Assembly (NCBI GenBank): GCA_020722505.1
Contig: DYKR01000002.1
Location: forward strand, 27,921-91,920
DNA from: Caldisericum exile
GTDB taxonomy: Bacteria > Caldisericota > Caldisericia > Caldisericales > Caldisericaceae
Direction: 5' to 3'
DNA: 64,000 nt
Shown here: positions 27,796 through 44,564 of the stretch, piece after piece
Layout of the letters: each line of letters starts with the position of its first letter
Numbering within the stretch: position 1 is the stretch's first letter
Made by a program: the position numbers and the translations under genes
Notes under the pieces: model-generated
What the model was told of the DNA's origin: nothing
The model's database searches: none
What the model saw: only the letters and a program-made list of their open reading frames with translations

Positions 27796-30510
27796 TTAAA
27801 TTTTTTTAATTGAACACGCACATGCTTTAAATTCAGGAATTTTTGCAATTGGATCAATGGCATTTATCGTAAGAACATTTGCGTTTGCCTCGGAAAAATG
27901 GAAGCTAATAAACGCAATGCCTTTCTTTGGTTTTGTTGAAATTTTTGCTTTTACATTTACACTTCCTCTTCTTGTTTTAATCTCCACCTTATCACCATTT
28001 TTAATACCAAGCTCTTCAGCATCTTTTGGATTAATCTCAACATAGTTTTCTGGAACAAAAGATTCTAAAACTTTAACCCTTCTTGTTTCATTTCTTGAAT
28101 GATAATGGAACAGTATTCTACCTGTTGTTAAAATGAAAGGATACTCTTCATCGGGGGTCTCAACGGGAGGTTCATATTTTACACCAGTAATAAGAGCCTT
28201 TCCATTAGGTCTTTTAAAGTTTCCCCCGTAATGTAAAATACTTGTCCCAGGGTATGTTTCTTCTGGACAAGGCCATTGCAATGATTGTTCTTTAAGTCTT
28301 TCATAATTTACTCCCTTAAACGTAGGAGTAAGCTCTCTTATTTCGTTCCAGATATCTTCGGATGATTGATAATCCATATTATAGCCCATTCTCTTTGCAA
28401 CTTCTAAAACAATTTCCCAATCGTCCTTAATACCGTATGGAACTTCTCTTGCAGGATGTAATAACTGTATCCTACGTTCCGTATTTGTAAATGTACCATG
28501 CTTTTCATATGCAGCCTTAGAAGGAAAAACAACATCTGCAAGCTGAGCAGTTTCTGAAAGGAAAATTTCCTGAACTGCAAGGAATTCTAACTTTTCAAAT
28601 CCTTCTTTAACATGTTTTACATCTGCCTCTGTTACTAACGGGTTTTCACCCATTGCATAGACTGCTTTAATCTTCCCATTGAGAGCAAGATCTCCAAATT
28701 GGGTAACTGCATATCCAACTTCAGTTGGAAGATTAACCCCATAGAACTCCTCAAATTTTTTACGTGCGGTTTCATCAGTTACTTTTTGATAACCTGTGAA
28801 CACATCAGGAAGCACACCAACATCGCAAGCACCCTGAACATTTGCCTGGCCTCTTAGTGGATTTATTCCATTACCTTCTCTCCCAATATGGCCTGTAATA
28901 AGAGCAAGATTTGCTATTGAAAGCACGTTATCTGTGCCTATGCGGTGTTGGGTAATACCCATTGTATAGAAAATCAATGAATTTGGACCTTTTGCATACA
29001 TCACTGCCGCATCTTCAATGAGCTTCTTTTCAACTCCGGTAATTTTAGAAACTTCATCAAGATCAACTTCTTCAAGGACCTTTAAGAGATTCTCAAAACC
29101 TTCTGTATGGCTTTCAATAAATTCTTTATTCAAAAGACCTTTTTCAACAATGACTTTCATCATGCCATTCAAAAGGGCAACGTCACTTCCAGGATAGTGT
29201 TGTATGAAAATATCTGCATCCTTTGCAAGATCTATATTTCTTGGGTCACATACTATGAGTTTTGCACCCTTTTTCTTTTTATTTTCTTTAATGAACTGCG
29301 CAATTACTGGATGTGTTTCGGTTGTATTAGAACCAATAACAAACATTACGTCAGCATTCTTTATATCGTCTATTGGGTTTGTCGCAGCAGCAGCTCCTAA
29401 AGCTTTACCTAAACCAGCAATAGTTGAAGCATGACAAAGTCTTGCACAGTTATCAACGTTATTGGTGCCTATCACGGCTCTTGCAAATTTCTGGATTAAA
29501 TAGTTGTCTTCATTTGTGCATCGAGAAGAACCTAAAACACCAATAGCATCAGGTCCATATTTATTTTTTATTTCTAACAATTTTTTTGCCGTATAGTCAA
29601 GGGCTTCTTCCCAGGTTGCTTCTCTAAAAACACCGTTTTCTTTTATAAGAGGTTTTGTTAATCTCTCGTTGGAGTTAACGTATTCATATCCATAACGTCC
29701 TTTAACACAAAGTCTTCCTTTGTTGGGCTTAACGTCTTTTGATTTTGCCATAACAAGCTCATTTTTCTTATTACGGTAGAGAGTAATATTACATCCCACT
29801 CCGCAGTATGCACAGACAGTATCAGTTGCTTCTAATTGGAAAATCTTACCTTTACCAACTCTCGTTTTTTCAATTAGAGCACTAGTTGGACAGGCTTGGA
29901 CGCATTCCGCACAAAATTGACAATCCGTTTGTTCAAGAGGCAAATTAAACGGAGTTGAGACGATTGATTTATACCCTCTCATAGCAATCCCAATTGCCTC
30001 AACAATTGCTTGGTTTTCGCAGGCATCAACACAGCGTCTACATAGAATACATTTTTGGGGATCAAATTGAATGAACGGATTCGTATCCCAGGGAGTTTCC
30101 TTTGGATATTCAAATGCTTCTTTCTCATCAAGAAATTGACTCTTTTTTATCCCAAATTCATATGCAAGACCTTGCAAGATGCAATCTCCGTCTTTATCAC
30201 AGGTCATACAATCCAAAGGGTGATGTGCAAGGGCAAGTTCAAGATTCATTCTTCTTGCTTCTTCAACGATCTGAGAATTTGTAGTTATTTCCATTCCTTC
30301 GGCTATTTCTGTAATACATGCTCTTTGAAGAGTTTTAGAGCCTTTAACTTCCACTACGCACATTCCACAAGAACCCTCTTCAGCAATACCCTCAAGATAA
30401 CAAAGGGTAGGGATTTCAATTCCTACATCTTTACACGCATCAAGAATTCTTTTTCCTCTTGGAAATTGATAACTTTTACCATTAATTTTAACGTTTACTA
30501 AATCACTCAT
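27796..30510 (-). CDS. fdhA: Formate dehydrogenase catalytic (alpha) subunit, cysteine type, with NuoG-like N-terminal Fe-S domains
   Basis: N-terminal [2Fe-2S], HHPLDCMTCDKDGDC, two [4Fe-4S] motifs, CAYCGVGC, then NCARLCHASTIAGL; molydopterin oxidoreductase body and dinucleotide-binding C-terminus. Confidence 0.93.
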   Translation of the reverse strand: MSDLVNVKINGKSYQFPRGKRILDACKDVGIEIPTLCYLEGIAEEGSCGMCVVEVKGSKTLQRACITEIAEGMEITTNSQIVEEARRMNLELALAHHPLDCMTCDKDGDCILQGLAYEFGIKKSQFLDEKEAFEYPKETPWDTNPFIQFDPQKCILCRRCVDACENQAIVEAIGIAMRGYKSIVSTPFNLPLEQTDCQFCAECVQACPTSALIEKTRVGKGKIFQLEATDTVCAYCGVGCNITLYRNKKNELVMAKSKDVKPNKGRLCVKGRYGYEYVNSNERLTKPLIKENGVFREATWEEALDYTAKKLLEIKNKYGPDAIGVLGSSRCTNEDNYLIQKFARAVIGTNNVDNCARLCHASTIAGLGKALGAAAATNPIDDIKNADVMFVIGSNTTETHPVIAQFIKENKKKKGAKLIVCDPRNIDLAKDADIFIQHYPGSDVALLNGMMKVIVEKGLLNKEFIESHTEGFENLLKVLEEVDLDEVSKITGVEKKLIEDAAVMYAKGPNSLIFYTMGITQHRIGTDNVLSIANLALITGHIGREGNGINPLRGQANVQGACDVGVLPDVFTGYQKVTDETARKKFEEFYGVNLPTEVGYAVTQFGDLALNGKIKAVYAMGENPLVTEADVKHVKEGFEKLEFLAVQEIFLSETAQLADVVFPSKAAYEKHGTFTNTERRIQLLHPAREVPYGIKDDWEIVLEVAKRMGYNMDYQSSEDIWNEIRELTPTFKGVNYERLKEQSLQWPCPEETYPGTSILHYGGNFKRPNGKALITGVKYEPPVETPDEEYPFILTTGRILFHYHSRNETRRVKVLESFVPENYVEINPKDAEELGIKNGDKVEIKTRRGSVNVKAKISTKPKKGIAFISFHFSEANANVLTINAIDPIAKIPEFKACACSIKKI

Positions 30511-32146
30511 TTATGACCTCCTCTTTTATTGGTTCAAATTGGCAAATATTTGAAGGGCATTTTCTTTCATCAATATGTGCAAGCCACTCTTCTTTAAATT
30601 TTGTGAGAGACTGCAACAAGATATTTGGTGTTGTTTGCCCTAAGCCACAAAAAGATGTTAGTTTCATTGCGTTTGATAATTTTTCGAGTTTCACTAAATC
30701 TTCTCTTTGCCCATTCCCTTTTGATACGTTATCAACTATCCTATAAATTACATCCGTTCCAACTCTACAGGGAGTGCACTTACCACAAGATTCATGCCTA
30801 AAGAAATAAGCGATGTTTTTGACAACATCAACAATACAGCGATCTTCGCTTAAGACAACAATCGATCCCGAACCAGGGCCTGCCTCAATTTTTGCAAGGG
30901 AATTAAAATCAACTTCCGTATCAATTTCTTCTTTTGAAATAAGGCTGCCTGAAACACCACCTAAAATTACTACTTTAAGATTTTTACCACCCTTAACTCC
31001 AAAACCTACTTCTTCTATTATCTCTCTTAGTTTTACGCCAAATGGTATTTCGATTACTCCTTTGTAATTTACATCGCCCATCAAACTAAACAGTTTTGTT
31101 CCATACGACCCAGGAACTCCTATTTGTTTAAACCAGTTAGAACCATTTACCAGTATTGGAGGTATGTTTGCAAGTGTTTCAACATTGTTTATTACTGTGG
31201 GTCTCTTAAATAAGCCAGATGTTGGAGGATACGGAGGTTTTTTCCTTGGTTCGCCGCGTTTCCCTTCGATTGACTCTAAAAGAGCGGTTTCTTCACCACA
31301 GACGTATGCACCTGCACCTTTTTTGATCTCTATATCAAAGTCAAAACCTGAGCCTAAAATATCTTTACCGAGAAAACCATAATCATATGCTTGCTCTATT
31401 GCTTTAGAAAGCCTTTTGATAGAAAGTTCGTATTCCCCTCTTATGTAGATATACCCATAGGTTGCTCCCGTTGCAAAACCTGCTAAAATCATCCCTTCAA
31501 TAATAGAATGGGGATCACCTTCCATGAGGACTCTGTCTTTAAAAGTTCCAGGTTCTCCCTCGTCCGCATTACAGATGACAAATTTAACATCACTTTTTGC
31601 CATTGCAGTAAATTCCCACTTCTTTCCTGTTGGAAAACCTGCTCCACCTCTGCCTCTCAATTCTGAATTCTTCACCTCATTCAAAACCCATTCACTTCCA
31701 TTTTCAAAAGCCTTTTCAAGTGCAAGATAACCATCCTCTGCAATGTATTCTTCAATTGATTCAGGATTAATACTCCCAACTCTTCTTAATAACACCTTCT
31801 TCTGCACTGATAAAACTTTTTCTGCCTTACTTATACCAAGTGAAACATCCTTTTTACCAATTTCATGGGAGATATTAGATAAAATCCTACCTTTAAGAAA
31901 ATGCTCCTTTACAATTAAAGGCACATCTTTTGGTGTAACAGGAGCATATATAATGCCTTCAGGATAAACGGCAATTGCAACACCAATATCTTCGTATCCA
32001 AGGCTTCCTGTTGGCGTAATAAGGATTTCCTTTTCAAGTCCAAGGTTTCTTATTTCTCTTAAAAGTAATTCCTCAATTTCTTTTGCTCCTTTTGAAAGGC
32101 TTTTTGAGTCCTCTGCAACTAGCACATGAGTTCTATAAAATTTCAT
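30503..32146 (-). CDS. NuoF/HydB-like NADH-binding subunit (paralog 2); N-terminal ferredoxin-like domain lacks Cys
   Basis: LRGRGGAGFPTGKKW, NADEGEPGTFKDR, CGEETALLESIEGKRGEPRKKPP, ESCGKCTPCR...CGLGQ. Confidence 0.92.
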   Translation of the reverse strand: MKFYRTHVLVAEDSKSLSKGAKEIEELLLREIRNLGLEKEILITPTGSLGYEDIGVAIAVYPEGIIYAPVTPKDVPLIVKEHFLKGRILSNISHEIGKKDVSLGISKAEKVLSVQKKVLLRRVGSINPESIEEYIAEDGYLALEKAFENGSEWVLNEVKNSELRGRGGAGFPTGKKWEFTAMAKSDVKFVICNADEGEPGTFKDRVLMEGDPHSIIEGMILAGFATGATYGYIYIRGEYELSIKRLSKAIEQAYDYGFLGKDILGSGFDFDIEIKKGAGAYVCGEETALLESIEGKRGEPRKKPPYPPTSGLFKRPTVINNVETLANIPPILVNGSNWFKQIGVPGSYGTKLFSLMGDVNYKGVIEIPFGVKLREIIEEVGFGVKGGKNLKVVILGGVSGSLISKEEIDTEVDFNSLAKIEAGPGSGSIVVLSEDRCIVDVVKNIAYFFRHESCGKCTPCRVGTDVIYRIVDNVSKGNGQREDLVKLEKLSNAMKLTSFCGLGQTTPNILLQSLTKFKEEWLAHIDERKCPSNICQFEPIKEEVINE

Positions 32147-32571
32147 AACGCCCCCTCCTTAAACTTCTTTATAATACCTTCAATATCTTCTTCTTTAAGA
32201 TTACCAAAAGGAACATCATCTATCATCATTGAAGGGGCAATTGAGCACATACCAAGACAACTAGATTCTTCTAATGTAAACTCGCCGTCTGATGTAGTTT
32301 CTCCGATATCTATTCCAAGGACTTCTTTAAGTTTGTTTAAAATAGACTCTCCATTTGCAAGATGACAAGATAAACTCCTACAAACCCTTATAATGTGCTT
32401 TCCCCTTTGAGTAACCGAAAACATCGTATAAAAGGTTGCAACGCCGTAAACTTTTGAAAGAGAAAGATTAGAGGTTTCTGCAACTTTTTTGGCTAAATCT
32501 TTAGATACGTAATTTTTAGGGTTACTTTCCTGAACGTCATGAAGAAGATCTATTAAAGACTTTTCTTTCAT
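32143..32571 (-). CDS. NuoE-like [2Fe-2S] subunit (paralog 2)
   Basis: VYGVATFYTMF, CRSLSC, CLGMCSIAPSMMIDD. Confidence 0.92.
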   Translation of the reverse strand: MKEKSLIDLLHDVQESNPKNYVSKDLAKKVAETSNLSLSKVYGVATFYTMFSVTQRGKHIIRVCRSLSCHLANGESILNKLKEVLGIDIGETTSDGEFTLEESSCLGMCSIAPSMMIDDVPFGNLKEEDIEGIIKKFKEGAL

Positions 32572-34195
32572 TTTTTACCTCCGAAGAAAGTTTACAAACA
32601 TTTGAGGGACACTTCTTATCCTTTATGTGAGCTATGTATTCATCTCTAAAGTATCTTAATGTTGTAAGAACTGGGTTAGGAGCAGTTTGTCCTAAACCAC
32701 ACAAAGAAGCAAGTTTTATTGTATTTCCAAGCTTTTCAAGCAATTCTAAATCTTCCATTTGACCTTTTCCAGAGGTAATCCTTTCAAGGATATTGAGCAT
32801 CTGACGAGTTCCTTCCCTACAAGGAGTGCATTTACCACAAGATTCATCAACTGTAAACTTTAGGAAGAACTTTGCTACATCAACCATGCAACTTGTTTCA
32901 TCCATTACAATTAAACCACCCGAACCCATAATTGCACCTAAAGATGTAAGGCTTTCGTAATCCATTGGAACATCGATATACTGAGAGGGAATTACACCGC
33001 CTGAAGGTCCTCCAGTTTGAGCTGCTTTAAAAGAATGTCCTTCTGGAATCCCTCCACCGATATCGTAAATTATTGTCCTTAAAGGTGTGCCAAGAGGCAC
33101 TTCTACCAAGCCTGTTATGTTGACTTTACCTGCAAGTGCGAAAACTTTTGTGCCAGGACTTTTTTCTGTCCCAAAGCTTCTGAAGAATTTAGCACCCTTT
33201 TCTATAATAACGGGAATGTTAGCGAGCGTTTCCACGTTATTTATTACAGTAGGAAAGCCGAATACACCTTTTTGAACTGGGAATGGTGGCTTCTTTCTTG
33301 GTTCACCACGTTTACCTTCAATAGAATTAATTAAAGCAGTTTCTTCACCACAAACAAAAGCACCTGCACCTATTCTTAATTCAATATCAAATGAAAAATT
33401 AGTTCCCAATATGTTCTTTCCTAATAAGCCTGCCTGCTTTGCTTGTTTTATTGCAATTTCTAATCTTTTTACCGCAAGAGGATACTCAGCACGGACATAA
33501 ATAAACCCTTTCTGAGCACCTATTGCATAACCTGCTATAGTCATACCTTCCAAAACAGAATGTGGATCACCCTCTAAGACTGATCTATTCATATAGGCAC
33601 CAGGATCACCTTCATCGGCATTGCATACAATATATTTGATAGGGGAGTCCTGTTCATAGGCAAGTTGCCACTTCTTTCCTGTTGGAAAACCAGCACCACC
33701 TCTGCCTCTTAAGCCAGAATCTTTTACAACTTGAATAACGTCTTCTCGTGTCATTTCTGTTAATGCTTTACCAAGTGCTTCATAACCACCTTGAGCGATA
33801 TATTCGTTAATATCCTCAGGATTTATAATTCCACAGTTTCTTAAAACAATTTTCGTCTGTTTTGCAAAAAATGGGATTTCACTTAAAGATGGGAGGACAG
33901 TCTCTTTTTCCTTCCACATCAATCTCTTCACAGCTCTTCCTTTTAAGAAATGTTCTTCTACTATTTCTTTAGCATCTTCCGGTTTTAGTTTTGTATAAAT
34001 AACCCCCTCAGGATAAACAGCCATGAGTGGTCCAAGTTGACACGAACCCATGCATCCTGTTTCTATAATGTTTACCTCTTTAAGCAGTTCGTGCTTTTTA
34101 AGTTCGTCTTTTAAGGCATCTTCAAAACCATTTCCACCTGCAGCAATGCATTGAGCACCAGCACAAATTAATGCATGAATCCTATAGATTTTCAT
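32537..34195 (-). CDS. NuoF/HydB-like NADH-binding subunit (paralog 1) with intact N-terminal [2Fe-2S] domain
   Basis: CAGAQC...GCMGSC N-terminal domain; LRGRGGAGFPTGKKW, NADEGDPGAYMNR, CGEETALINSIEGKRGEPRKKPP, ESCGKCTPCR...CGLGQ. Confidence 0.93.
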   Translation of the reverse strand: MKIYRIHALICAGAQCIAAGGNGFEDALKDELKKHELLKEVNIIETGCMGSCQLGPLMAVYPEGVIYTKLKPEDAKEIVEEHFLKGRAVKRLMWKEKETVLPSLSEIPFFAKQTKIVLRNCGIINPEDINEYIAQGGYEALGKALTEMTREDVIQVVKDSGLRGRGGAGFPTGKKWQLAYEQDSPIKYIVCNADEGDPGAYMNRSVLEGDPHSVLEGMTIAGYAIGAQKGFIYVRAEYPLAVKRLEIAIKQAKQAGLLGKNILGTNFSFDIELRIGAGAFVCGEETALINSIEGKRGEPRKKPPFPVQKGVFGFPTVINNVETLANIPVIIEKGAKFFRSFGTEKSPGTKVFALAGKVNITGLVEVPLGTPLRTIIYDIGGGIPEGHSFKAAQTGGPSGGVIPSQYIDVPMDYESLTSLGAIMGSGGLIVMDETSCMVDVAKFFLKFTVDESCGKCTPCREGTRQMLNILERITSGKGQMEDLELLEKLGNTIKLASLCGLGQTAPNPVLTTLRYFRDEYIAHIKDKKCPSNVCKLSSEVKNERKVFNRSSS

Positions 34196-34198
34196 GTA

Positions 34199-34567
34199 CT
34201 ACTCCTTTGCAATAACCCAATCACTAATAATCTGTCCATTGATTACATGGGATGCTACAATTTGCCTTGCCATCTCCGGAGCAACATGCCCATAGTAAAC
34301 TACAACCCCATCTCTATCAACTCCCACAACAGGTTCTTCAACATCCAACCCCATGGAACCCCTTTCAATAATCTGAACATCTGTAAAATTTCTTTTTTGA
34401 AGTTCATCTAATATTGCCAAAAGGACATCTCTTGACCCTGCTGCAATACCAACAGTTCCCATGCTAATGTAAATTTTTACTTTTACTTCTCCTTGCCTTG
34501 TTCTTAAAAATGCTTTTGCTTGTTCTCTCAATTTTCTCAAGTCTTCAATCGACTTAATTTTGTCCAT
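34199..34567 (-). CDS. Thioredoxin-like ferredoxin-fold subunit of the hyd/fdh operon, cysteine-free
   Basis: KIKSIEDLRKLREQAK...YISMGTVGIAAGSRDVLLAILDELQKRN...IIERGSMGLDVEEPVVGVDRDGVVVYYGHVAPEMARQIVASHVINGQIISDWVI matches the stand-alone (2Fe-2S) ferredoxin-domain family of hydrogenase operons. Confidence 0.8.
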   Translation of the reverse strand: MDKIKSIEDLRKLREQAKAFLRTRQGEVKVKIYISMGTVGIAAGSRDVLLAILDELQKRNFTDVQIIERGSMGLDVEEPVVGVDRDGVVVYYGHVAPEMARQIVASHVINGQIISDWVIAKE

Positions 34568-35113
34568 TTAAACACCTCCATGTAGTTCTTTTATTTTTTC
34601 TTCTAAAAAAGTTTTGATACTACTCAATAAAAATGGAGTGCAAAGTGATTCCTCACACGTTTTCCTCAGATCCTCTGTTGAAATCTCAAAAGTTTTGTTA
34701 TTTACAACATGTTTGAACTTCAAATTCACTTCAGGATGCGTTGCAATGATACTAACAATGGTTGCAGGTAAATCCCCCAAAGGTGGCACATCAATATGAG
34801 ACTTTTTAAAGCATACCTTTACAATCATCCCTAAACCCTTTTTACTTTCAATAAATACACCCCCATCACATGATTCTGCCTCAAGTTTCAATAACGGAAG
34901 CCCTAAACCAACCTTTTTGTTTTTAGATGTAGTCATGAATGGGTCAAAGACTTCTTTTAATAAGGTTTCATCCATTCCAACTCCATCGTCTTTTACTTCA
35001 ATTAAAAGTAGGTCTTTCGAATCATCTTCAATGATTGTAAGTTCAATATTTTTTGCCTTTGCTTTAAGTGAATTTTCAATTATATCAAGAATATTTAAGG
35101 AAAGTTCTTTCAT
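34568..35113 (-). CDS. HATPase_c-domain ATP-binding protein of the hyd/fdh operon
   Basis: LNILDIIENSLKA (N box), VKDDGVGMDETLLKEVFDPF (G1), KKVGLGLPLLKLEAES (G2). Confidence 0.88.
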   Translation of the reverse strand: MKELSLNILDIIENSLKAKAKNIELTIIEDDSKDLLLIEVKDDGVGMDETLLKEVFDPFMTTSKNKKVGLGLPLLKLEAESCDGGVFIESKKGLGMIVKVCFKKSHIDVPPLGDLPATIVSIIATHPEVNLKFKHVVNNKTFEISTEDLRKTCEESLCTPFLLSSIKTFLEEKIKELHGGV

Positions 35114-35593
35114 TTAAGAATATTTTGTAAGGATTTCTAATACTTTTTCTTTGGTCACTTTTCCATAAACATCTTTCCCGTCAACCATAATAGCAGGAGC
35201 AAGACCACAACACCCAAGACATCTAACAATTCTCACAGCAAATCTTCCATCTTTTGTAATTTCGTTTGGTTTAATACCCAAATGATTACAGATAACATCT
35301 AAAATATTTTCCGAGCCTTTTACATAGCAAGCCGTCCCCATACAAACCATAATTACATGTCCAGCATCTTTTTTAAGTTTAAAAAAATTGTAAAAAGTCA
35401 CAACTCCATAGATTTTAGAAAGGGGCACGTTAAGTTTCTCTGAAATGTAAGTAAGCACCTCTTCAGGTAGATACCCAAGGCTTTCTTGAGTGCCATGCAG
35501 CACCTGTATAAGGGATTCTGGTTTTGCACCCCATTTCCTGATTTCCATATCAACTGCAGGGAATGTTTTTACCTCCATCGTTCCTCCTTTCAT
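35114..35593 (-). CDS. NuoE-like [2Fe-2S] subunit (paralog 1)
   Basis: LIQVLHGTQESLGYLPEEVLTYIS, YGVVTFYNFF, CMGTAC, CLGCCGLAPAIMVDG. Confidence 0.93.
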   Translation of the reverse strand: MKGGTMEVKTFPAVDMEIRKWGAKPESLIQVLHGTQESLGYLPEEVLTYISEKLNVPLSKIYGVVTFYNFFKLKKDAGHVIMVCMGTACYVKGSENILDVICNHLGIKPNEITKDGRFAVRIVRCLGCCGLAPAIMVDGKDVYGKVTKEKVLEILTKYS

Positions 35594-36446: not shown

Positions 36447-37255
36447 TTTTAGAATTCCCGATTTTTGGAGAAGACTTTGATCATCTTGGAGATGCAACTT
36501 TAAGAATAAGGGAGTCACTTCTAAAAGCACTTAATACACCCATTTTAAATGCGAGCAAAAGTAGAGAAAAAGAAATTGTAAGAAAATCTGGCATCTGCCT
36601 CTATGAAGCCGAAGCAAATATAGTGATACACGCAAAGTTTGGTTTTATTAAAACAATACTATACAAGCAAAAAATTGTCTCAATTGCAAAAGACATAGGA
36701 CCAGGGATAAAAAACCTCATTCTTGCTTTAAAACCTGGTTATTCAACGGCATCGGAAAAAGCAAGAATGCTTGGGTTTGGTGCAGGTATGGGCCTTAAGA
36801 ATATCGAAAAAATTTCTGATTTTTTCTTCTTAATCTCCACATTTGGAAAAGGGACATACCTTCTTTTCGAAGTTTGGAGAAACAATACTACTCTTGGAGG
36901 TGTCAAAATGAAAATAAGAAAGTTAATAGAAGAATTAAAACTTGAAGTGCTTACAAATTTCACCGAAAAAGATTTAGATAAAATAGTAGAAGAAGCTTAC
37001 ACTTGCGATTTACTGAGCAATGTTCTTTCAAAGGCTGAAGAAGAAACTACTTGGATAACTGTTCAATCTAACATCAATGTAGTAGGTGTTGCAACAATTA
37101 AGAGGATACCGATTATTATAGTTACTGAGAGTAATACCCCTGAAGAAGAAACTTTAAAAAAGGCTGAGTTAAACTCAATCATCATCGCAAGAACTAAACT
37201 ATCATCTTTTGAGATATCTGGACAACTATACAACTTACTTAAAAAACAGAATTAA
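36428..37255 (+). CDS. RsbT-like HATPase fused in frame to a C-terminal DRTGG domain
   Basis: YEAEANIVIHA, KDIGPGI, GYSTASEKARMLGFGAGMGLKNIEKIS; C-terminal KIRKLIEELKLEVL...DLLSNVLSKAEEETTWITVQSNINVVGVA...TPEEETLKKAELNSIIIARTKLSSFEISGQL. Confidence 0.8.
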   Translation: MEDTILVLEFPIFGEDFDHLGDATLRIRESLLKALNTPILNASKSREKEIVRKSGICLYEAEANIVIHAKFGFIKTILYKQKIVSIAKDIGPGIKNLILALKPGYSTASEKARMLGFGAGMGLKNIEKISDFFFLISTFGKGTYLLFEVWRNNTTLGGVKMKIRKLIEELKLEVLTNFTEKDLDKIVEEAYTCDLLSNVLSKAEEETTWITVQSNINVVGVATIKRIPIIIVTESNTPEEETLKKAELNSIIIARTKLSSFEISGQLYNLLKKQN

Positions 37256-40032
37256 ATCATTTCTTCTATTGAAATAATCCTTGTGTTTTGATAATTTTTT
37301 ATTTTTGGATTATCATCAACAACAACATCAGAAACTCGAATCTTCTTAGCAATTAAAATATTGAAGGCTGTTGTAATATTACTTCCAATTCTCTTTGCAA
37401 TATCCTCTGCAAGCCTTTCTTCAATCTGCGAGAGAGCAATAACAGCAGGCTTATAACCACCTTCTAAAATAATGTCGTTAATCTTGGCTTTTTCTGAAGC
37501 AGCAACAAATGCCCTATTTAAAATATTATCTTTTTCGGATTTGCTTAATTTATCGTTTTCAAAAATCTTTCTAAAAGAGGCTGCATCGATAACGAATCTA
37601 TCTTTAAGTTCAATTTTAACATGCGGTTCACTTATTAACTTTTCTTCTTTTGCTTTACTGACATCTTCTTTTATAGGTTCGGCAGCTTCTTTCTTTTCGG
37701 TTTGCTCTTGCTTTTCCTTCTCTAACTTAGACAAAAGCTCATCAAAAGTAGATCTAAATTGTTCCTTTTGGGAAGACTCCTTCTTTTCCTCCGCTACCTC
37801 TTCTACCTTTTTTACTTCTTCAGTTTTTTTCAAAGTTTCAGTATCTTCAGGAGGTTGCGCAAAATCTGCAAAAGAAACTTCTTCAACTGCTTCTACAGGC
37901 TTAGTTTGAGGGACTTCCTCTTTTTCTTTTACTTCTTCTACTTTTATAATAGGCTTTTCTTCCTTTTTCTCTGAAGGTTTAATAATCTTTGTAGGTTCAA
38001 TAATAGGTTTTTCGCCAAATCTTTTCTGCGGGATTGGTCTAAGGATTTTCTCTTCTTTAACTATTTGCTCCTCTGCTATTTTTTTACCCTCTTTAACAGG
38101 GGCTTTTTCTTCAGGCTTTAATTTTATAACAGGAACTTCAGCTTTTTCTTCAACAGGTTTTGCTCCCTCAACTGGTTTTTCAATTTCCCTTATTTCGATA
38201 TCTTTAACATCAAAAACAATGGGTTTCTTTTTTATTTCTTTAAAAGAAACTTCTTTTATTTTTTTATTATGCCTTTTAGGGAATAAAATTACTAAAAGAA
38301 TTAATAAAACTGCTAAGGATATAATAGAGGAAATTAAGTCTGGAGTTAAATTTGGAAGATAATTTTTTGTGTAATTGTAAATCTGTAAAGATAAAGGCTT
38401 AAGAAATTCAAGGATTTTTAGTGAAATATTTTTAAAAAAAGAAGCAATAATGCTGAATGTATAAGCTACATCAAAACCACTAAACGTATTTTTAAAGAAT
38501 TCCATTATTTTCCCCACTATTGATAGTATAGTACCTTTTACCTTTTCTAATAAACTTTTTTCCTGGGTAGACTCGTTATCTGAAGGACTAGGGTTATTTA
38601 CAGTGTTATTTCCACTCTCTTGAGATGGGGCAACAGTTGAGATTTTTATAAACTCAGAAGTTTTATAGGGAATAAGAGTGCTAAATATCTCTCTATTTTT
38701 TGCAATACCAAGGTCAAATACCACAATTTGCTTGTTGGATGATATATCAACTCTTGAAAAACTTTCATTAAACAAGAACTCTTTTTTCTCATATGCGCCT
38801 TGCGTATATTTTGACCCATTGGCATAAAAAGAAGTATCGTCGCTTACTGGAATGACAACAACTCTTCTTTTTCTCTCACCATAGATGTTTGTAACCTTAC
38901 CAGCCCTAAAATCATACTTAGTAAAATTGTTAAACCCTGGTAACTGTTCTGCATCCGTATTACCATAAACACCGTAAGTATAAATCACAACAGATTTTGA
39001 AGCATTTACCTTTACCGGAACCATCTTTAATGGGTTATTCCCAGTTTTATCTAACTGTGTTTCAAAATACTCAAAATCATTAACATCCTTAAGAGTAAAA
39101 GTTTTCTTTACGCCACCAAATTCAACGCTAATTTCTGTATCTTTAAATATAGATGATACTCCAAACCCTCCAAAAGATTCAAATTCTAAATTTCCAAGTC
39201 CCAAAATAGTTGCAAAAACATTATCTGAAGCATAACCATATTCAACCAAAACAGGCTTATCAGAGGAAATAATGTAAAAACCTTCTTTTAGGTTAGTATT
39301 CATGTAGAAAGAACCTTCAGCAATGTCGCTTTCGGTTACAATTTTGCCTTCACTATCTTCAACTCTTATATGGGCATTATCTTGAGTAAAAATAAAAAGA
39401 AACTTCGGGATATAAATTCCAAAATACGCACCATAGAGAGAAGAAATATCGTCAGAAGAATTCTTATCAAAAGGAGCAGTTAAAGTCGAAATACTTACTA
39501 AAACAGGTCTATTAGAGACTAATTCATAGACTCCGTCTTCCAATAATTTAATGGTTTTAAAACCCTTCTCATTAAGAATAATATCAAAATAAATTTTATT
39601 AGTATCTTTCTTTATAATTTTTACGTTGTTATCGGAAGAAGGGGAGAAAACATTCACGTTACATGAAGTGGGTATAATAAAATGAGTTCCATAGTAATCG
39701 GGAACGAAAAATTCAACATACTGAGGGTTTGAAACACCATAGGCAAGTTTTAAGTTTTTCTTCTCTAAAGGACTAAAATTCAAATAAGTTTTAAAAATTA
39801 TTGTATTTCCTTTTTCTGTAAAGGAAAGGGGAAGTCTATTTTGACCATCTAAAAGTTCAAAACCCGTTAGTCCATTAAAAACCGACTTATCAATACTAAA
39901 GGAAACAGTTTTTGCAACCTTTATGTTCAATGTATTTTCAAAGACAATATTAACTACAGATTGAGATCGTGATGTATGCACGTAACCAAAAACTAATACA
40001 CAAATAAGAGCAAAAATAATAAACTTTTTCAT
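37252..40032 (-). CDS. Large uncharacterised single-pass membrane protein (beta-rich extracytoplasmic region, TM, long charged linker, C-terminal globular domain)
   Basis: Signal peptide; TM ISSIISLAVLLILLVILF followed by KRHNKK; E/K/P-rich linker; C-terminal RFVIDAASFRKIFENDK...NTRIISIEEMI. Confidence 0.75.
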   Translation of the reverse strand: MKKFIIFALICVLVFGYVHTSRSQSVVNIVFENTLNIKVAKTVSFSIDKSVFNGLTGFELLDGQNRLPLSFTEKGNTIIFKTYLNFSPLEKKNLKLAYGVSNPQYVEFFVPDYYGTHFIIPTSCNVNVFSPSSDNNVKIIKKDTNKIYFDIILNEKGFKTIKLLEDGVYELVSNRPVLVSISTLTAPFDKNSSDDISSLYGAYFGIYIPKFLFIFTQDNAHIRVEDSEGKIVTESDIAEGSFYMNTNLKEGFYIISSDKPVLVEYGYASDNVFATILGLGNLEFESFGGFGVSSIFKDTEISVEFGGVKKTFTLKDVNDFEYFETQLDKTGNNPLKMVPVKVNASKSVVIYTYGVYGNTDAEQLPGFNNFTKYDFRAGKVTNIYGERKRRVVVIPVSDDTSFYANGSKYTQGAYEKKEFLFNESFSRVDISSNKQIVVFDLGIAKNREIFSTLIPYKTSEFIKISTVAPSQESGNNTVNNPSPSDNESTQEKSLLEKVKGTILSIVGKIMEFFKNTFSGFDVAYTFSIIASFFKNISLKILEFLKPLSLQIYNYTKNYLPNLTPDLISSIISLAVLLILLVILFPKRHNKKIKEVSFKEIKKKPIVFDVKDIEIREIEKPVEGAKPVEEKAEVPVIKLKPEEKAPVKEGKKIAEEQIVKEEKILRPIPQKRFGEKPIIEPTKIIKPSEKKEEKPIIKVEEVKEKEEVPQTKPVEAVEEVSFADFAQPPEDTETLKKTEEVKKVEEVAEEKKESSQKEQFRSTFDELLSKLEKEKQEQTEKKEAAEPIKEDVSKAKEEKLISEPHVKIELKDRFVIDAASFRKIFENDKLSKSEKDNILNRAFVAASEKAKINDIILEGGYKPAVIALSQIEERLAEDIAKRIGSNITTAFNILIAKKIRVSDVVVDDNPKIKNYQNTRIISIEEMI

Positions 40033-40069: not shown

Positions 40070-40363
40070 TTAGGAAGGAGATTTTTCTGCTTCCTCCATA
40101 ATCGCCTTAACTTTATCTGCCACCTCTTTTCCACCCACAGAACAAGCATCGTAGGGAGCTCTTTTTTCAGCAATTGCTTCGGCACAAGGATGACAACCAG
40201 GAAATCCGCAGGCTCCGCATTCTCCATGTGGTAACACCTCATAAATTGCGGAGACTAAAGGACTTTCTTCAACTTTAAATTTTTCTGCAAATACTCCAAT
40301 TAACGCTCCAAACAAAGCTCCTAACACACCTAAAGTGCCTACAGAAACCAACAAATCTTTCAT
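40070..40363 (-). CDS. rnfB: RnfB-like subunit, truncated to TM plus single Fe-S (4Fe-4S_ASC) domain
   Basis: N-terminal TM, LPHGECGACGFPGCHPCAEAIAEKRAPYDACSVGG; stops after 97 aa. Confidence 0.88.
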   Translation of the reverse strand: MKDLLVSVGTLGVLGALFGALIGVFAEKFKVEESPLVSAIYEVLPHGECGACGFPGCHPCAEAIAEKRAPYDACSVGGKEVADKVKAIMEEAEKSPS

Positions 40364-40372
40364 ACTACACCT

Positions 40373-40963
40373 CTATTTTATTATCCCGCTAAAGCCTAAA
40401 AATGCAAGGGAAAGAATACCAGAAATCATAAAGGCGATTGCCTTCCCTTTAAAAAACGAAGGTAAATCAGAATTCCTTAATCTTTCCCTAATGCCTGCAA
40501 GAAGTAACATGGCAATTGCATAACCAGTTGCTATACCAAAGCCAGAAACAATTGATTCAACAAAATCGTATTTGGTCATTGAGTTGATAAATGTTACACC
40601 AAGTATAAGACAGTTTGTTGCAATAAGTGGAAGGTAAATACCCATTGCTTTATATAGATTTGGAGAAGCCTTTTTAATGTATAGCTCAACAAGTCCAACA
40701 AAAGAACCAATCACAAGAATAAATGCTGTAATTTGAAGAGCTGGTTGAAGCCCTGTAGGTATAAGAATCCAGTTATCAATCATCCAGGCAAGAATCGAAG
40801 AAGAAACCGTTACAAAAATTACTGCAAAGCTCATTCCAATTGAAGATGAAAGGTTATCGGTTAATCCTATGTAAGAACACAAACCAAGAAACTGAATAAG
40901 AATTATGTTATTAATTATGCTTGAAGAAATAAATATCTTTATAAGATTTTCTAAATAACTCAT
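40373..40963 (-). CDS. rnfA: Electron transport complex subunit RnfA
   Basis: NNIILIQFLGLCSYIGLTDNLSSSIGMSFAVIFV, LIATNCLILG. Confidence 0.92.
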   Translation of the reverse strand: MSYLENLIKIFISSSIINNIILIQFLGLCSYIGLTDNLSSSIGMSFAVIFVTVSSSILAWMIDNWILIPTGLQPALQITAFILVIGSFVGLVELYIKKASPNLYKAMGIYLPLIATNCLILGVTFINSMTKYDFVESIVSGFGIATGYAIAMLLLAGIRERLRNSDLPSFFKGKAIAFMISGILSLAFLGFSGIIK

Positions 40964-41562
40964 TTCTTACCTCCCTTTTGCTTGAGGTATGTTTCAATTG
41001 CACCAGTTAAAATTCCAACAAAAATAAAACCTGCTGGCGGAAGAATCATAAGAAGCATAGGTTGATAACTTTCGGGCATTATTTGGATACCTGCAAGAGT
41101 TCCTTTTCCAATTAGTTCCCTTCCTATAGCAATAGTAACAAGCACCAAACCATAACCAATAGTGTTCCCTATTCCATCAAGAAGCGAATCAAAAATACCA
41201 TTTTTATAGGCAAAAGCTTCGGCTCTTCCAATGATAATACAGTTTACAACTACAAGAAGAATGTAGAGTTTAATGACCTGGTATATTGGATTAAAAAACG
41301 CCCGAGATAACAAAGCCGCAATAGTTGTAAAAGCAGCAATTACGCTTACAAAGATGGGGACTCTTAATTCGTTAGGAATAATTTTTCTCATGGCTGAGAT
41401 TAAAACGTTTGATGGAATCTGCACTAATGCAAAAACAAAAGTCATAAGAAGTGCACTTTTAACGGAGTTAGAAACCGCAATAACCGAACACAAACCTATC
41501 GAAATTATAAGAACAGGGTTATTTGGTATTATTGCATCCCAAATGATTTTTAATTTTTTCAT
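40960..41562 (-). CDS. rnfE: Electron transport complex subunit RnfE
   Basis: NPVLIISIGLCSVIAVSNSVKSALLM, VVNCIIIGRAEAFA. Confidence 0.92.
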   Translation of the reverse strand: MKKLKIIWDAIIPNNPVLIISIGLCSVIAVSNSVKSALLMTFVFALVQIPSNVLISAMRKIIPNELRVPIFVSVIAAFTTIAALLSRAFFNPIYQVIKLYILLVVVNCIIIGRAEAFAYKNGIFDSLLDGIGNTIGYGLVLVTIAIGRELIGKGTLAGIQIMPESYQPMLLMILPPAGFIFVGILTGAIETYLKQKGGKK

Positions 41563-42158
41563 TGGTGAGCCTCCTTTAAATATTGAAGAAACGACTCCCC
41601 TGCAACTTTAGCACCTGTAGATATCGCCTTAGAAGTAATTGTTGCACCAGTTATCGCAATTATATCTTCTTTTGGGATTAATTTTTCTTTTTCAACATTC
41701 TTACCCTTGAATTGACCTAAAAATGTTATCTTGTTTTTCTTATCAACATAGTAAGAAGGGTTATCAGCGTTAGCGCCCAAGCCAGCCGTCTCCTGAATTG
41801 ATAAAATCGTTATTCCAGAAATTGTTCCGTCTTTTTTAACTCCCACAAGCATCTTAATGGGTGCTTGAGACCCTGCAACTGCAACTGTTAAAACCCCTCC
41901 TTCAATCGAATTAGAGTTTTTATCCTTCACAAGAAATGTATCAAGAATCTGAACAGAAGAATCCAATGATTGGATGGGATCTTTAAGTTTTACAAATTCA
42001 TAATTACCACTAAATACGTTTTGCAATCCTTCCTGCAGTGCTCTCTCATCTTGAAGTTTAATAATAGGATCCGTTATTTGAAAAACTACCGCTAAAGCTA
42101 AACCAATAATTGCAGCGATTATACCAAAATTCAAAGCGAACTTAAGCACATTTTTCAT
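41559..42158 (-). CDS. rnfG: Electron transport complex subunit RnfG
   Basis: ILSIQETAGLGANADN and flavinylation-type AITGATITSKA. Confidence 0.9.
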   Translation of the reverse strand: MKNVLKFALNFGIIAAIIGLALAVVFQITDPIIKLQDERALQEGLQNVFSGNYEFVKLKDPIQSLDSSVQILDTFLVKDKNSNSIEGGVLTVAVAGSQAPIKMLVGVKKDGTISGITILSIQETAGLGANADNPSYYVDKKNKITFLGQFKGKNVEKEKLIPKEDIIAITGATITSKAISTGAKVAGESFLQYLKEAHQ

Positions 42159-43159
42159 TTTGACACCTCTTTTTTAGGAAAAACACCATAAACTCTTGGC
42201 ATAACCTTATCAAAATACGGAACTAAAGCATTACCTAAAAGAATTGAAAACATTACACCTTCTGGGTAAGCAGCAAACTGACGGATTATAACGGTCAAAA
42301 TGCCAAGAAATATGCCATAATAAACCTTACCAAGTGGTGTTATTGGAGATGAACTATAGTCAGTTGCCATGAAAAATGCGCCGAGAAATAGACCACCAGC
42401 AAAGATTGAAAACACTGGGTCTCTACCAAAAATAAATGACAAAACGAAAACAGTTGTGATATAAAAAGTAGGAATTTTCCAATCAATGACTTTTCTTATA
42501 AATAGATAAATAGCTCCTATTAAAAGAAGAAGTGCTGAAGTTTCTCCAATACTACCACCCACAGTGCCAAAGAAAAGAGAAGTATACAAGTTTAGTTTGC
42601 TGCCAAATTCAGAAATAAGTTGAGAATAACTTTGTAATTGAACTACATTCAAAGGAGTTGCCGATGTAACGGTATCGAGGTTTAAAATTCTGAAAGGAAA
42701 TCCTATGAAAAACCGTGGTTTATCCCATGTAGTCATATAGGTAGGCCAAGAAACCATTAGAACAGCTCTTCCTACAAGAGCAGGGTTGAATGGGTTTGAG
42801 CCAATTCCACCAAAAATCATCTTTCCAAGTAAAATTCCTGAAAATGCCCCTACTACAACCATCCACCATGGAGAGCTCGGCGGTAGAGTCATCGCAAATA
42901 AAACACCAGTCACAACCGCAGAAAAATCTTTTAGTGATGACTTTTTATGAAATAGAAGATTGCCCACATATTCTGCAAGAATTGAAGAAACTATCGAAAC
43001 CAAATAAACAACAATTACTTTCCCACCAAAAATAAAAACACTTCCAACCACTGCTGGGATTAAAGCTAAAACAACATCTCTCATGATGGAGGAAGTATTC
43101 ACCTTATCCCTTATGTGAGGGGCAGCATTAACAACAAGATCGATATCATAGTTAGCCAT
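42155..43159 (-). CDS. rnfD: Electron transport complex subunit RnfD
   Basis: Multi-TM; FMN site SATPLN; start moved to MANYDIDLVV with SD AGGAGG. Confidence 0.92.
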   Translation of the reverse strand: MANYDIDLVVNAAPHIRDKVNTSSIMRDVVLALIPAVVGSVFIFGGKVIVVYLVSIVSSILAEYVGNLLFHKKSSLKDFSAVVTGVLFAMTLPPSSPWWMVVVGAFSGILLGKMIFGGIGSNPFNPALVGRAVLMVSWPTYMTTWDKPRFFIGFPFRILNLDTVTSATPLNVVQLQSYSQLISEFGSKLNLYTSLFFGTVGGSIGETSALLLLIGAIYLFIRKVIDWKIPTFYITTVFVLSFIFGRDPVFSIFAGGLFLGAFFMATDYSSSPITPLGKVYYGIFLGILTVIIRQFAAYPEGVMFSILLGNALVPYFDKVMPRVYGVFPKKEVSK

Positions 43160-44564
43160 TTTTTTCCTCCTTCTGAGACATTTCCTTTTCTTTTTGTCGT
43201 TGTTGCTTGAGTTTCTCAAAGGCAGCTTGTTTTGCAGCTTCAATTTTCTTCTGCTTAATAATTGCTTGTTTTACACTCTTAATGTTTTCGGTCAAATGTC
43301 TTTTTGAAGGACAAACATAGGAACAAACTCCACATTCTATGCAATCAAGAGCACGGAGCCTTTCTGCTTCTTGCAAATCTTTTCTTCTTGAAGCATGGTC
43401 AATAAGAACAGGCATAAGTCCCATAGGGCAACTATCAACACAACTTGCACATCTTATACAAGACAATTCTTCCTGCGGAGCCATTTCCAAGGCTTTCTCA
43501 CCAAACATAAGAATACCTGAAGTTCCTTTAATTACAGGCACATCGACAGATGCCTGGGCAATTCCCGTCATTGGGCCACCAAATATGAGTTTTCTTAATT
43601 TCCTATTGAGCCCAAGAGTATCAATGATAAAACTTGCAGGCGTTCCAATACGCACTATAAAATTACCCTTTTTCTCAACAGCATCACCTGAAACGGTAAT
43701 GCCTCTTCCAATTACAGGTTTATCTTCCAATATAGCCTCAGTTATTGCCTTCAAAGTCTGGACATTCTGCACAACAACACCAACATTCAAAGGCAACCCT
43801 CCCGAAGGAACTTCTCTATTAAGCACTGCTTTTATGAGTTGCTTTTCGCCTCCTTGAGGATATTTTGTTTTAACAAGAACAACCTCAATATTTGATAAAC
43901 CCATTTCTTGCACTTTCTTATGAAGAAGTAAAGCTGCACCTTCTTTATTTTCTTCGACTGCTATAATACCCCTTTTTGCACCAGTAATCTGCATCTCGAT
44001 GAGAATACCTTTGATGATTTTTTCAGGGTATTCAAGCATAACCCTATTGTCAACAGTTAAATAAGGCTCGCATTCTGCTCCATTTCCAATGATCGTATCA
44101 ATTACTTTATTTGGTGGAGGAGAGAGTTTTACTGCTGTAGGAAAAGCTGCTCCTCCCAATCCCACGATACCTTTGTCTCTAATGATTTTTAAAATCTCTT
44201 CCTTTGGTAAATCATTAAAAGAGTCTCTTTTACTAAGTTCAACCCATTCGTCTTTGTAGTCGTTTTCAATTACAACACATTTTCCTTTTGTGCCGTTAGG
44301 CAAAAGTCTATCCTCAATTGCTAAAACTTTTCCAGATACCGAAGCATGCACTGGAGCTGCAACAAACTGGTTAGTATCACCAATTTTTTGACCAACCTTT
44401 ACGTAATCCCCAACTGAAACAAGGGGATTATTTGGTGCACCTGTATGTTGTTGCAAAGGAATAACAACAACCGGAGGAGACTTAAATACTTCAAACGGAA
44501 AGTCTTTTGTAATTTTACTTTCATCGGGGTGAACACCACCCGGAGAGTAAGTAAATACTTTCAT
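43152..44564 (-). CDS. rnfC: Electron transport complex subunit RnfC
   Basis: GGVHPDESK, GLGGAAFPTAVKL, CIRCASCVDSCP and CIECGVCSYVCP. Confidence 0.95.
   Translation of the reverse strand: MKVFTYSPGGVHPDESKITKDFPFEVFKSPPVVVIPLQQHTGAPNNPLVSVGDYVKVGQKIGDTNQFVAAPVHASVSGKVLAIEDRLLPNGTKGKCVVIENDYKDEWVELSKRDSFNDLPKEEILKIIRDKGIVGLGGAAFPTAVKLSPPPNKVIDTIIGNGAECEPYLTVDNRVMLEYPEKIIKGILIEMQITGAKRGIIAVEENKEGAALLLHKKVQEMGLSNIEVVLVKTKYPQGGEKQLIKAVLNREVPSGGLPLNVGVVVQNVQTLKAITEAILEDKPVIGRGITVSGDAVEKKGNFIVRIGTPASFIIDTLGLNRKLRKLIFGGPMTGIAQASVDVPVIKGTSGILMFGEKALEMAPQEELSCIRCASCVDSCPMGLMPVLIDHASRRKDLQEAERLRALDCIECGVCSYVCPSKRHLTENIKSVKQAIIKQKKIEAAKQAAFEKLKQQRQKEKEMSQKEEKNG

What the first reader, a model, noticed from the sequence alone, without database searches (positions are those of the whole stretch)
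40070..40363. RnfB reduced to 97 aa: no ferredoxin domains
In the Rnf operon C-D-G-E-A-B, RnfB keeps the TM helix and the four-cysteine cluster (GECGACGFPGC...DAC) but ends immediately after. It lacks the C-terminal [4Fe-4S] ferredoxin domains found in other RnfBs. The next gene starts 37 nt downstream and is not Fe-S related. Alternative frames in this stretch show no CxxCxxCxxxC motif, so this is not a frameshift. The ferredoxin-interacting module must be absent, supplied in trans, or replaced by RnfC's own clusters.
Basis: partly seen in the sequence, partly recalled or inferred. Interest (0 to 1): 0.65.

Follow-up and report, generated by a model that had tools for sequence, protein, structure and literature searches.

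The report
Ferredoxin-less short RnfB in Caldisericaceae
A membrane pump that turns ferredoxin electrons into an ion gradient has, in this bacterial family, lost the large docking arm of its electron-entry subunit; the loss is real and old, but the same short form is already known to work in Thermotoga maritima.

Summary
Window 40070-40363 (-) encodes a 97-aa RnfB: one TM helix plus the single [4Fe-4S] domain (FdI, PF04060), then a stop. It is no frameshift. All 17 complete copies from the family (Caldisericaceae, 9 genera) are 95-103 aa and under purifying selection. Sister families of the same phylum carry full-length RnfB (271-288 aa) in the same valS-folC-rnfCDGEAB neighbourhood, so the C-terminal ferredoxin module was lost in this lineage. 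A complete relative (G003, 1.56 Mb) has no second RnfB and no displaced four-cluster module.

The kind is already known. T. maritima RnfB is about 10.6 kDa with one predicted cluster in the same gene order, and its enriched Rnf oxidises ferredoxin, reduces NAD+ and pumps Na+ (PMC7414866). I find short RnfB in 83 of 99 Thermotogota genomes with a match. The best reading is that ferredoxin donates directly to FdI, with no trans subunit needed; substitution by RnfC's clusters is implausible. The rnfACDE tree rejects a Caldisericaceae-Thermotogota union, so the loss was probably independent. Specific to Caldisericaceae are a fifth invariant cysteine (C60), an LPHG(E/D)C motif and a basic RnfC tail, absent from the Thermotogota examined.

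The parts
40070..40363 (-). rnfB, short form: 97 aa, TM helix + FdI [4Fe-4S] domain only
   Evidence: (TIGR01944 76.9 bits, above cut-off 68.7); PF04060
40280..40360 (-). TM helix of RnfB (residues 2-28)
   Evidence: AlphaFold2 model, helix 2-28; aligned to TM1 of solved RnfBs
40142..40219 (-). FdI cluster motif C49, C52, C57, C74 plus the family-specific C60 (codon 40184-40186)
   Evidence: invariant in 17 of 17 family members; C60 not seen in full-length or Thermotogota RnfBs compared
40373..40963 (-). rnfA, with conserved cysteines for the membrane [2Fe-2S] cluster
   Evidence: TIGR01943 match; alignment
40960..41562 (-). rnfE, with conserved cysteines
   Evidence: TIGR01948 / RsxE match; alignment
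41559..42158 (-). rnfG, with TGAT flavinylation motif
   Evidence: TIGR01947 match; alignment
42155..43162 (-). rnfD
   Evidence: TIGR01946, 327.6 bits
43152..44564 (-). rnfC, 470 aa, two [4Fe-4S] motifs
   Evidence: TIGR01945, 516.6 bits
43152..43277 (-). basic C-terminal tail of RnfC (KIEAAKQAAFEKLK...), about 30 aa longer than in sister families
   Evidence: alignment; calculated pI 9.9
37252..40032 (-). next gene downstream: 926-aa protein with an apparent N-terminal signal sequence, no Fe-S motif; homologues also follow full-length rnfB in sister families, so not a replacement module

Best explanation
This is an intact Rnf complex (ferredoxin:NAD+ oxidoreductase, ion pump) whose RnfB has been cut down, in the ancestor of Caldisericaceae, to its membrane helix and the mobile FdI [4Fe-4S] domain. 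Reduced soluble ferredoxin most likely hands its electron directly to FdI. FdI then swings to the RnfA/E [2Fe-2S] cluster, and the electron passes via RnfG and RnfD to RnfC and NAD+. Shown here: the short protein, its conservation, the lineage-specific loss, the retained core cofactor sites, and no detectable relocated module in a complete relative. Inferred: direct ferredoxin docking, by analogy with T. maritima. More speculative: that the basic RnfC tail helps recruit acidic ferredoxin.
For: Short RnfB in 17 of 17 complete copies, 9 genera; pairwise dN about 0.01-0.16, and in every pair with an estimable dS, dS is several-fold to tens-fold larger. Full-length orthologues with three CxxCxxC motifs in the same gene neighbourhood in sister families f2, f3, f5. 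RnfA/C/D/E/G all present with cofactor motifs; ApbE homologue in G003. No second RnfB and no matching polyferredoxin in complete G003. T. maritima: RnfB 10.56 kDa, one predicted 4Fe-4S centre, order rnfCDGEAB, Fd:NAD activity and Na+ transport by the enriched complex (PMC7414866). Vitt et al. state that T. maritima RnfB is FdI only (PMC9588780). G886/G888 carry an RnfG whose C-terminal 103 aa match T. maritima 3dcz at all but the first residue of the fragment, together with a 100-aa RnfB.
Against: No biochemistry was found for a Caldisericaceae Rnf. In the T. maritima work only RnfC, D and G were identified by mass spectrometry, and the authors say the cluster number remains to be established (PMC7414866). 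An unrelated trans partner cannot be excluded by sequence. The physiological direction (Fd to NAD+ or reverse) is not known.
Confidence: 0.82

Rival explanations
1. The ferredoxin module is supplied in trans: a separate polyferredoxin or the ferredoxin domain of a partner enzyme (for example the HydABC-type hydrogenase encoded nearby) docks on FdI as an input subunit.
For: A split arrangement exists elsewhere: G575 has a 94-aa RnfB followed directly by a 249-aa polyferredoxin. Hydrogenase-type subunits lie a few kb downstream in this window.
Against: In complete G003 no protein carries the module's cluster array. The best hits are a 129-aa two-cluster protein in a NifX/DUF134-like cluster and enzyme-associated ferredoxins. 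The gene after rnfB in the family members read is the same non-Fe-S secreted protein. T. maritima works with a heterologous clostridial ferredoxin (PMC7414866).
Confidence: 0.12
2. The short RnfB is a pseudogene, frameshift or assembly error.
For: The window's own assembly is a 57% complete draft.
Against: Same length in 17 genomes, including a single-contig complete chromosome; purifying selection; no ferredoxin motif in any frame downstream.
Confidence: 0.01
3. RnfC's own two clusters take over the ferredoxin-accepting role.
For: RnfC keeps two [4Fe-4S] motifs and has an extended tail.
Against: RnfC is the NADH end; published RnfB-RnfC cluster distances are 25 to more than 30 A, and direct transfer would bypass the pump (PMC9588780, PMC11889175).
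Confidence: 0.03
4. Caldisericaceae obtained the short rnfB by transfer from Thermotogota rather than by their own truncation.
For: The RnfB-only tree (93 columns) cannot reject it: p-AU 0.33.
Against: Concatenated RnfA/E/D/C rejects a Caldisericaceae + Thermotogota clade (p-AU 8e-7). The locus is syntenic with sister families. The LPHG(E/D)C and C60 features are absent from the 30 sampled Thermotogota RnfBs.
Confidence: 0.15

Closest known systems
Short RnfB of Thermotoga maritima / Thermotogota (Kuhns et al. 2020, PMC7414866; Vitt et al. 2022, PMC9588780)
   Same: TM helix + FdI only, about 10-11 kDa, gene order rnfCDGEAB, no polyferredoxin next to it in the operon read; 83 of 99 phylum genomes with a match have frames of 136 aa or less
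   Different: Thermotogota have the usual LPGxNC...GCxx(Y/F) core. Caldisericaceae have LPHG(E/D)C and an extra C60, and a longer basic RnfC tail that the two Thermotogota operons read lack. Probably independent loss.
Full-length RnfB of C. tetanomorphum (7zc6), A. woodii (9eri), A. vinelandii (8ahx)
   Same: TM helix and FdI domain align over residues 1-90 or so
   Different: Those carry C-terminal ferredoxin domains with two to seven clusters (PMC12174285); absent here
NqrF of Na+-NQR
   Same: TM helix + small mobile Fe-S domain that reduces the membrane [2Fe-2S] (PMC12174285)
   Different: NqrF is unrelated in sequence and carries an FAD/NADH module as its input; here there is no input module
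Split RnfB of G575 (L225)
   Same: Separate short TM + FdI protein of 94 aa
   Different: The ferredoxin module is retained as an adjacent 249-aa gene

Membership tests
Rnf complex (RnfABCDEG) | All six subunits encoded together | tested here: met
   NCBIfam matches for C, D, G, E, A, B in one operon
Rnf complex (RnfABCDEG) | Cofactor sites: RnfA/E cysteines, RnfG flavinylation threonine, RnfC clusters | tested here: met
   alignments
Rnf complex (RnfABCDEG) | Fd:NAD+ oxidoreductase activity and ion transport | not testable with these tools
   needs membranes or purified complex
RnfB (TIGR01944) | N-terminal TM helix plus FdI four-cysteine domain | tested here: met
   76.9 bits against cut-off 68.7; profile positions 4-90 of 190; model
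RnfB (TIGR01944) | C-terminal ferredoxin domain(s) | tested here: not met
   no CxxCxxC in protein or downstream frames; the T. maritima precedent shows that members can lack it
Short (FdI-only) RnfB, T. maritima type | RnfB ends after FdI; six-gene rnfCDGEAB operon; no separate module adjacent | tested here: met
   PMC7414866
Short (FdI-only) RnfB, T. maritima type | Shared descent with the Thermotogota form | tested here: inconclusive
   RnfB tree unresolved (p-AU 0.33); operon tree rejects it

The most novel reading that the evidence does not exclude
In Caldisericaceae the FdI domain has been remodelled to be both shuttle and ferredoxin receptor: the invariant C60 beside the third cluster ligand and the acidic residue before the first ligand tune or expose the cluster, while a basic RnfC tail captures acidic ferredoxin in place of the lost module. 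This would be a second, independently evolved solution distinct from that of Thermotogota.
Probability: 0.3. Interest if true: 0.45.

Novelty: new member of a known kind. Interest (0 to 1): 0.3.

Why it matters
It shows that the ferredoxin module of RnfB, usually drawn as the entry point of the pump, appears dispensable and was probably lost at least twice. That supports FdI plus the membrane core as the minimal machine. It also gives a natural comparison for how NQR could have swapped its input subunit. It corrects the impression that short RnfB is a Thermotoga oddity.

Tried and rejected
Second PF04060 hits in several family members looked like a second RnfB. Those checked in genus g7 are FeS domains at the C-terminus of Fur-like regulators, those in g2, g5 and g6 lie in small genes next to a Fur-like gene, and the G007 hit is in a hydrogenase-like protein. 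The large secreted downstream protein was considered as a replacement module, but homologues sit next to full-length rnfB too. The best profile hit to the lost module in G003 (129-aa two-cluster protein) lies in a NifX/DUF134-like cluster and matches only part of the module. The RnfB-only tree is too short to settle origin. The structure model has moderate confidence (mean pLDDT 78.5) and its PDB matches (9eri, CFeSP; none with E below 0.001) add little beyond the sequence match. A search for papers joining Caldisericum and Rnf gave nothing relevant.

Full report
Observation. The ORF at 40070-40363 on the minus strand encodes 97 aa. It is the last gene of rnfCDGEAB; all six subunits match their NCBIfam models. 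The protein aligns with the TM helix and FdI domain of the three solved RnfBs, and ends where their ferredoxin domains begin. There is no ferredoxin motif in any frame down to 37000. The next gene starts 37 nt on and has no Fe-S family match.

Is it real? A search of 61 genomes found orthologues in every genome of the same family. Seventeen complete copies from nine genera are 95-103 aa; the eighteenth is cut by a contig end. One copy lies on a single-contig genome of 1,558,103 bp (G003), which was read in full. Pairwise dN is about 0.01-0.16. In every pair with an estimable dS, dS is several-fold to tens-fold larger, as in rnfA. The protein is therefore under purifying selection.

Naming the family. 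The genomes carry codes, not names. Public contigs with 64-78% identical short RnfBs are titled Caldisericum exile, Caldisericaceae or Caldiserica/Caldisericota, so I take family f1 to be Caldisericaceae.

Where did the module go? Families f2, f3 and f5 of the same phylum have RnfB of 271-288 aa with three CxxCxxC motifs. In f3 and f5 the locus reads valS-folC-small membrane protein-rnfCDGEAB-large secreted protein, as here; f2 shares valS, folC and the rnf operon. The downstream secreted protein is homologous in both groups, so it is not a replacement. A profile of the lost C-terminal part, run with all filters off over 5136 G003 ORFs, found only generic ferredoxins and Fe-S enzymes. No second RnfB is present in G003. 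The window's own genome is only 57% complete, so the trans test rests on G003 and near-complete relatives.

Is it known? Yes. Kuhns et al. 2020 (PMC7414866) report that T. maritima RnfB is only 10.56 kDa with one predicted 4Fe-4S centre, in the order rnfCDGEAB. The enriched complex catalyses Fd:NAD+ oxidoreduction with clostridial ferredoxin and transports Na+. Vitt et al. 2022 (PMC9588780) state that this RnfB consists only of FdI. I surveyed the phylum of G662. Its members G886/G888 carry an RnfG whose C-terminal 103 aa match T. maritima 3dcz at all but the first residue of the fragment, so I take the phylum to be Thermotogota. Of 99 genomes with a match, 83 have a frame of 136 aa or less, and 16 (one family) have a 231-240 aa frame with two FdI hits. 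Elsewhere, RnfB frames in the broad searches are almost all 230 aa or more. The exceptions seen are a two-cluster 184-aa form (G753), G492 (an orphan of 120 aa outside an rnf operon), a contig-cut copy in G775, and G575, where a 94-aa RnfB is followed by a separate 249-aa polyferredoxin. Several large phyla, Pseudomonadota among them, were not surveyed as such.

One loss or two? In a concatenated RnfA/E/D/C tree Caldisericaceae fall among the other Caldisericota families (the exact union with them is weakly supported), and a union with Thermotogota is rejected (p-AU 8e-7). The RnfB domain alone is too short to decide (p-AU 0.33). With the shared synteny, an independent truncation is favoured; transfer of rnfB alone is not excluded.

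What is specific here? All 17 family members have C60, three residues after the third cluster ligand. The full-length RnfBs compared and the 30 Thermotogota RnfBs read have Y, F or another residue there. They also have LPHG(E/D)C (once LPHSDC) where the compared full-length and Thermotogota proteins mostly have LPGxNC. RnfC has a basic tail about 30 aa longer than in sister families; the two Thermotogota operons read lack it. In A. woodii a basic C-terminal region of RnfB was proposed as a ferredoxin 'fishing hook' (PMC11889175). The RnfC tail could play that part here, but this is inference.

Mechanism. The best-supported path is soluble ferredoxin to FdI, FdI to the RnfA/E [2Fe-2S] cluster, then RnfG, RnfD, RnfC and NAD+. 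FdI is already proposed to shuttle between the module and RnfA/E in the published structures (PMC9588780, PMC11889175), so the change is only that ferredoxin takes the module's place. RnfC's clusters are too far away (25 to more than 30 A) and at the other end of the chain.

Verdict. The feature is a second lineage of a published variant, so interest is modest. The family-specific C60 and RnfC tail are the parts worth testing.

Noticed in passing
L230:7133-7834 (-), and 16 genomes of Thermotogota family f302: RnfB of 231-240 aa with two tandem FdI (PF04060) domains and no CxxCxxC ferredoxin motif in the one read in full: a third RnfB architecture.
   Followed up: partly
L225:8475-9510 (G575): RnfB apparently split into a 94-aa TM + FdI protein and an adjacent 249-aa polyferredoxin; could be a true gene split.
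   Followed up: partly
L118:3364-4161, L120:5375-6193: Fur-family-like regulators in Caldisericaceae that carry a C-terminal FeS (PF04060-like) domain, suggesting a cluster-sensing repressor.
   Followed up: no
G003:C1:393438-403453 (loci L059-L060): Operon of Mrp-antiporter-like and complex-I-like subunits with a 609-aa protein joining a NuoI-like ferredoxin part to an FAD/NAD(P) oxidoreductase part: a possible second ferredoxin-linked ion pump.
   Followed up: no
window 27796-35593 (-): HydA-like (904 aa), NuoF/HydB-like (552 aa) and NuoE-like subunits of a probable electron-bifurcating hydrogenase downstream of the rnf operon.
   Followed up: no
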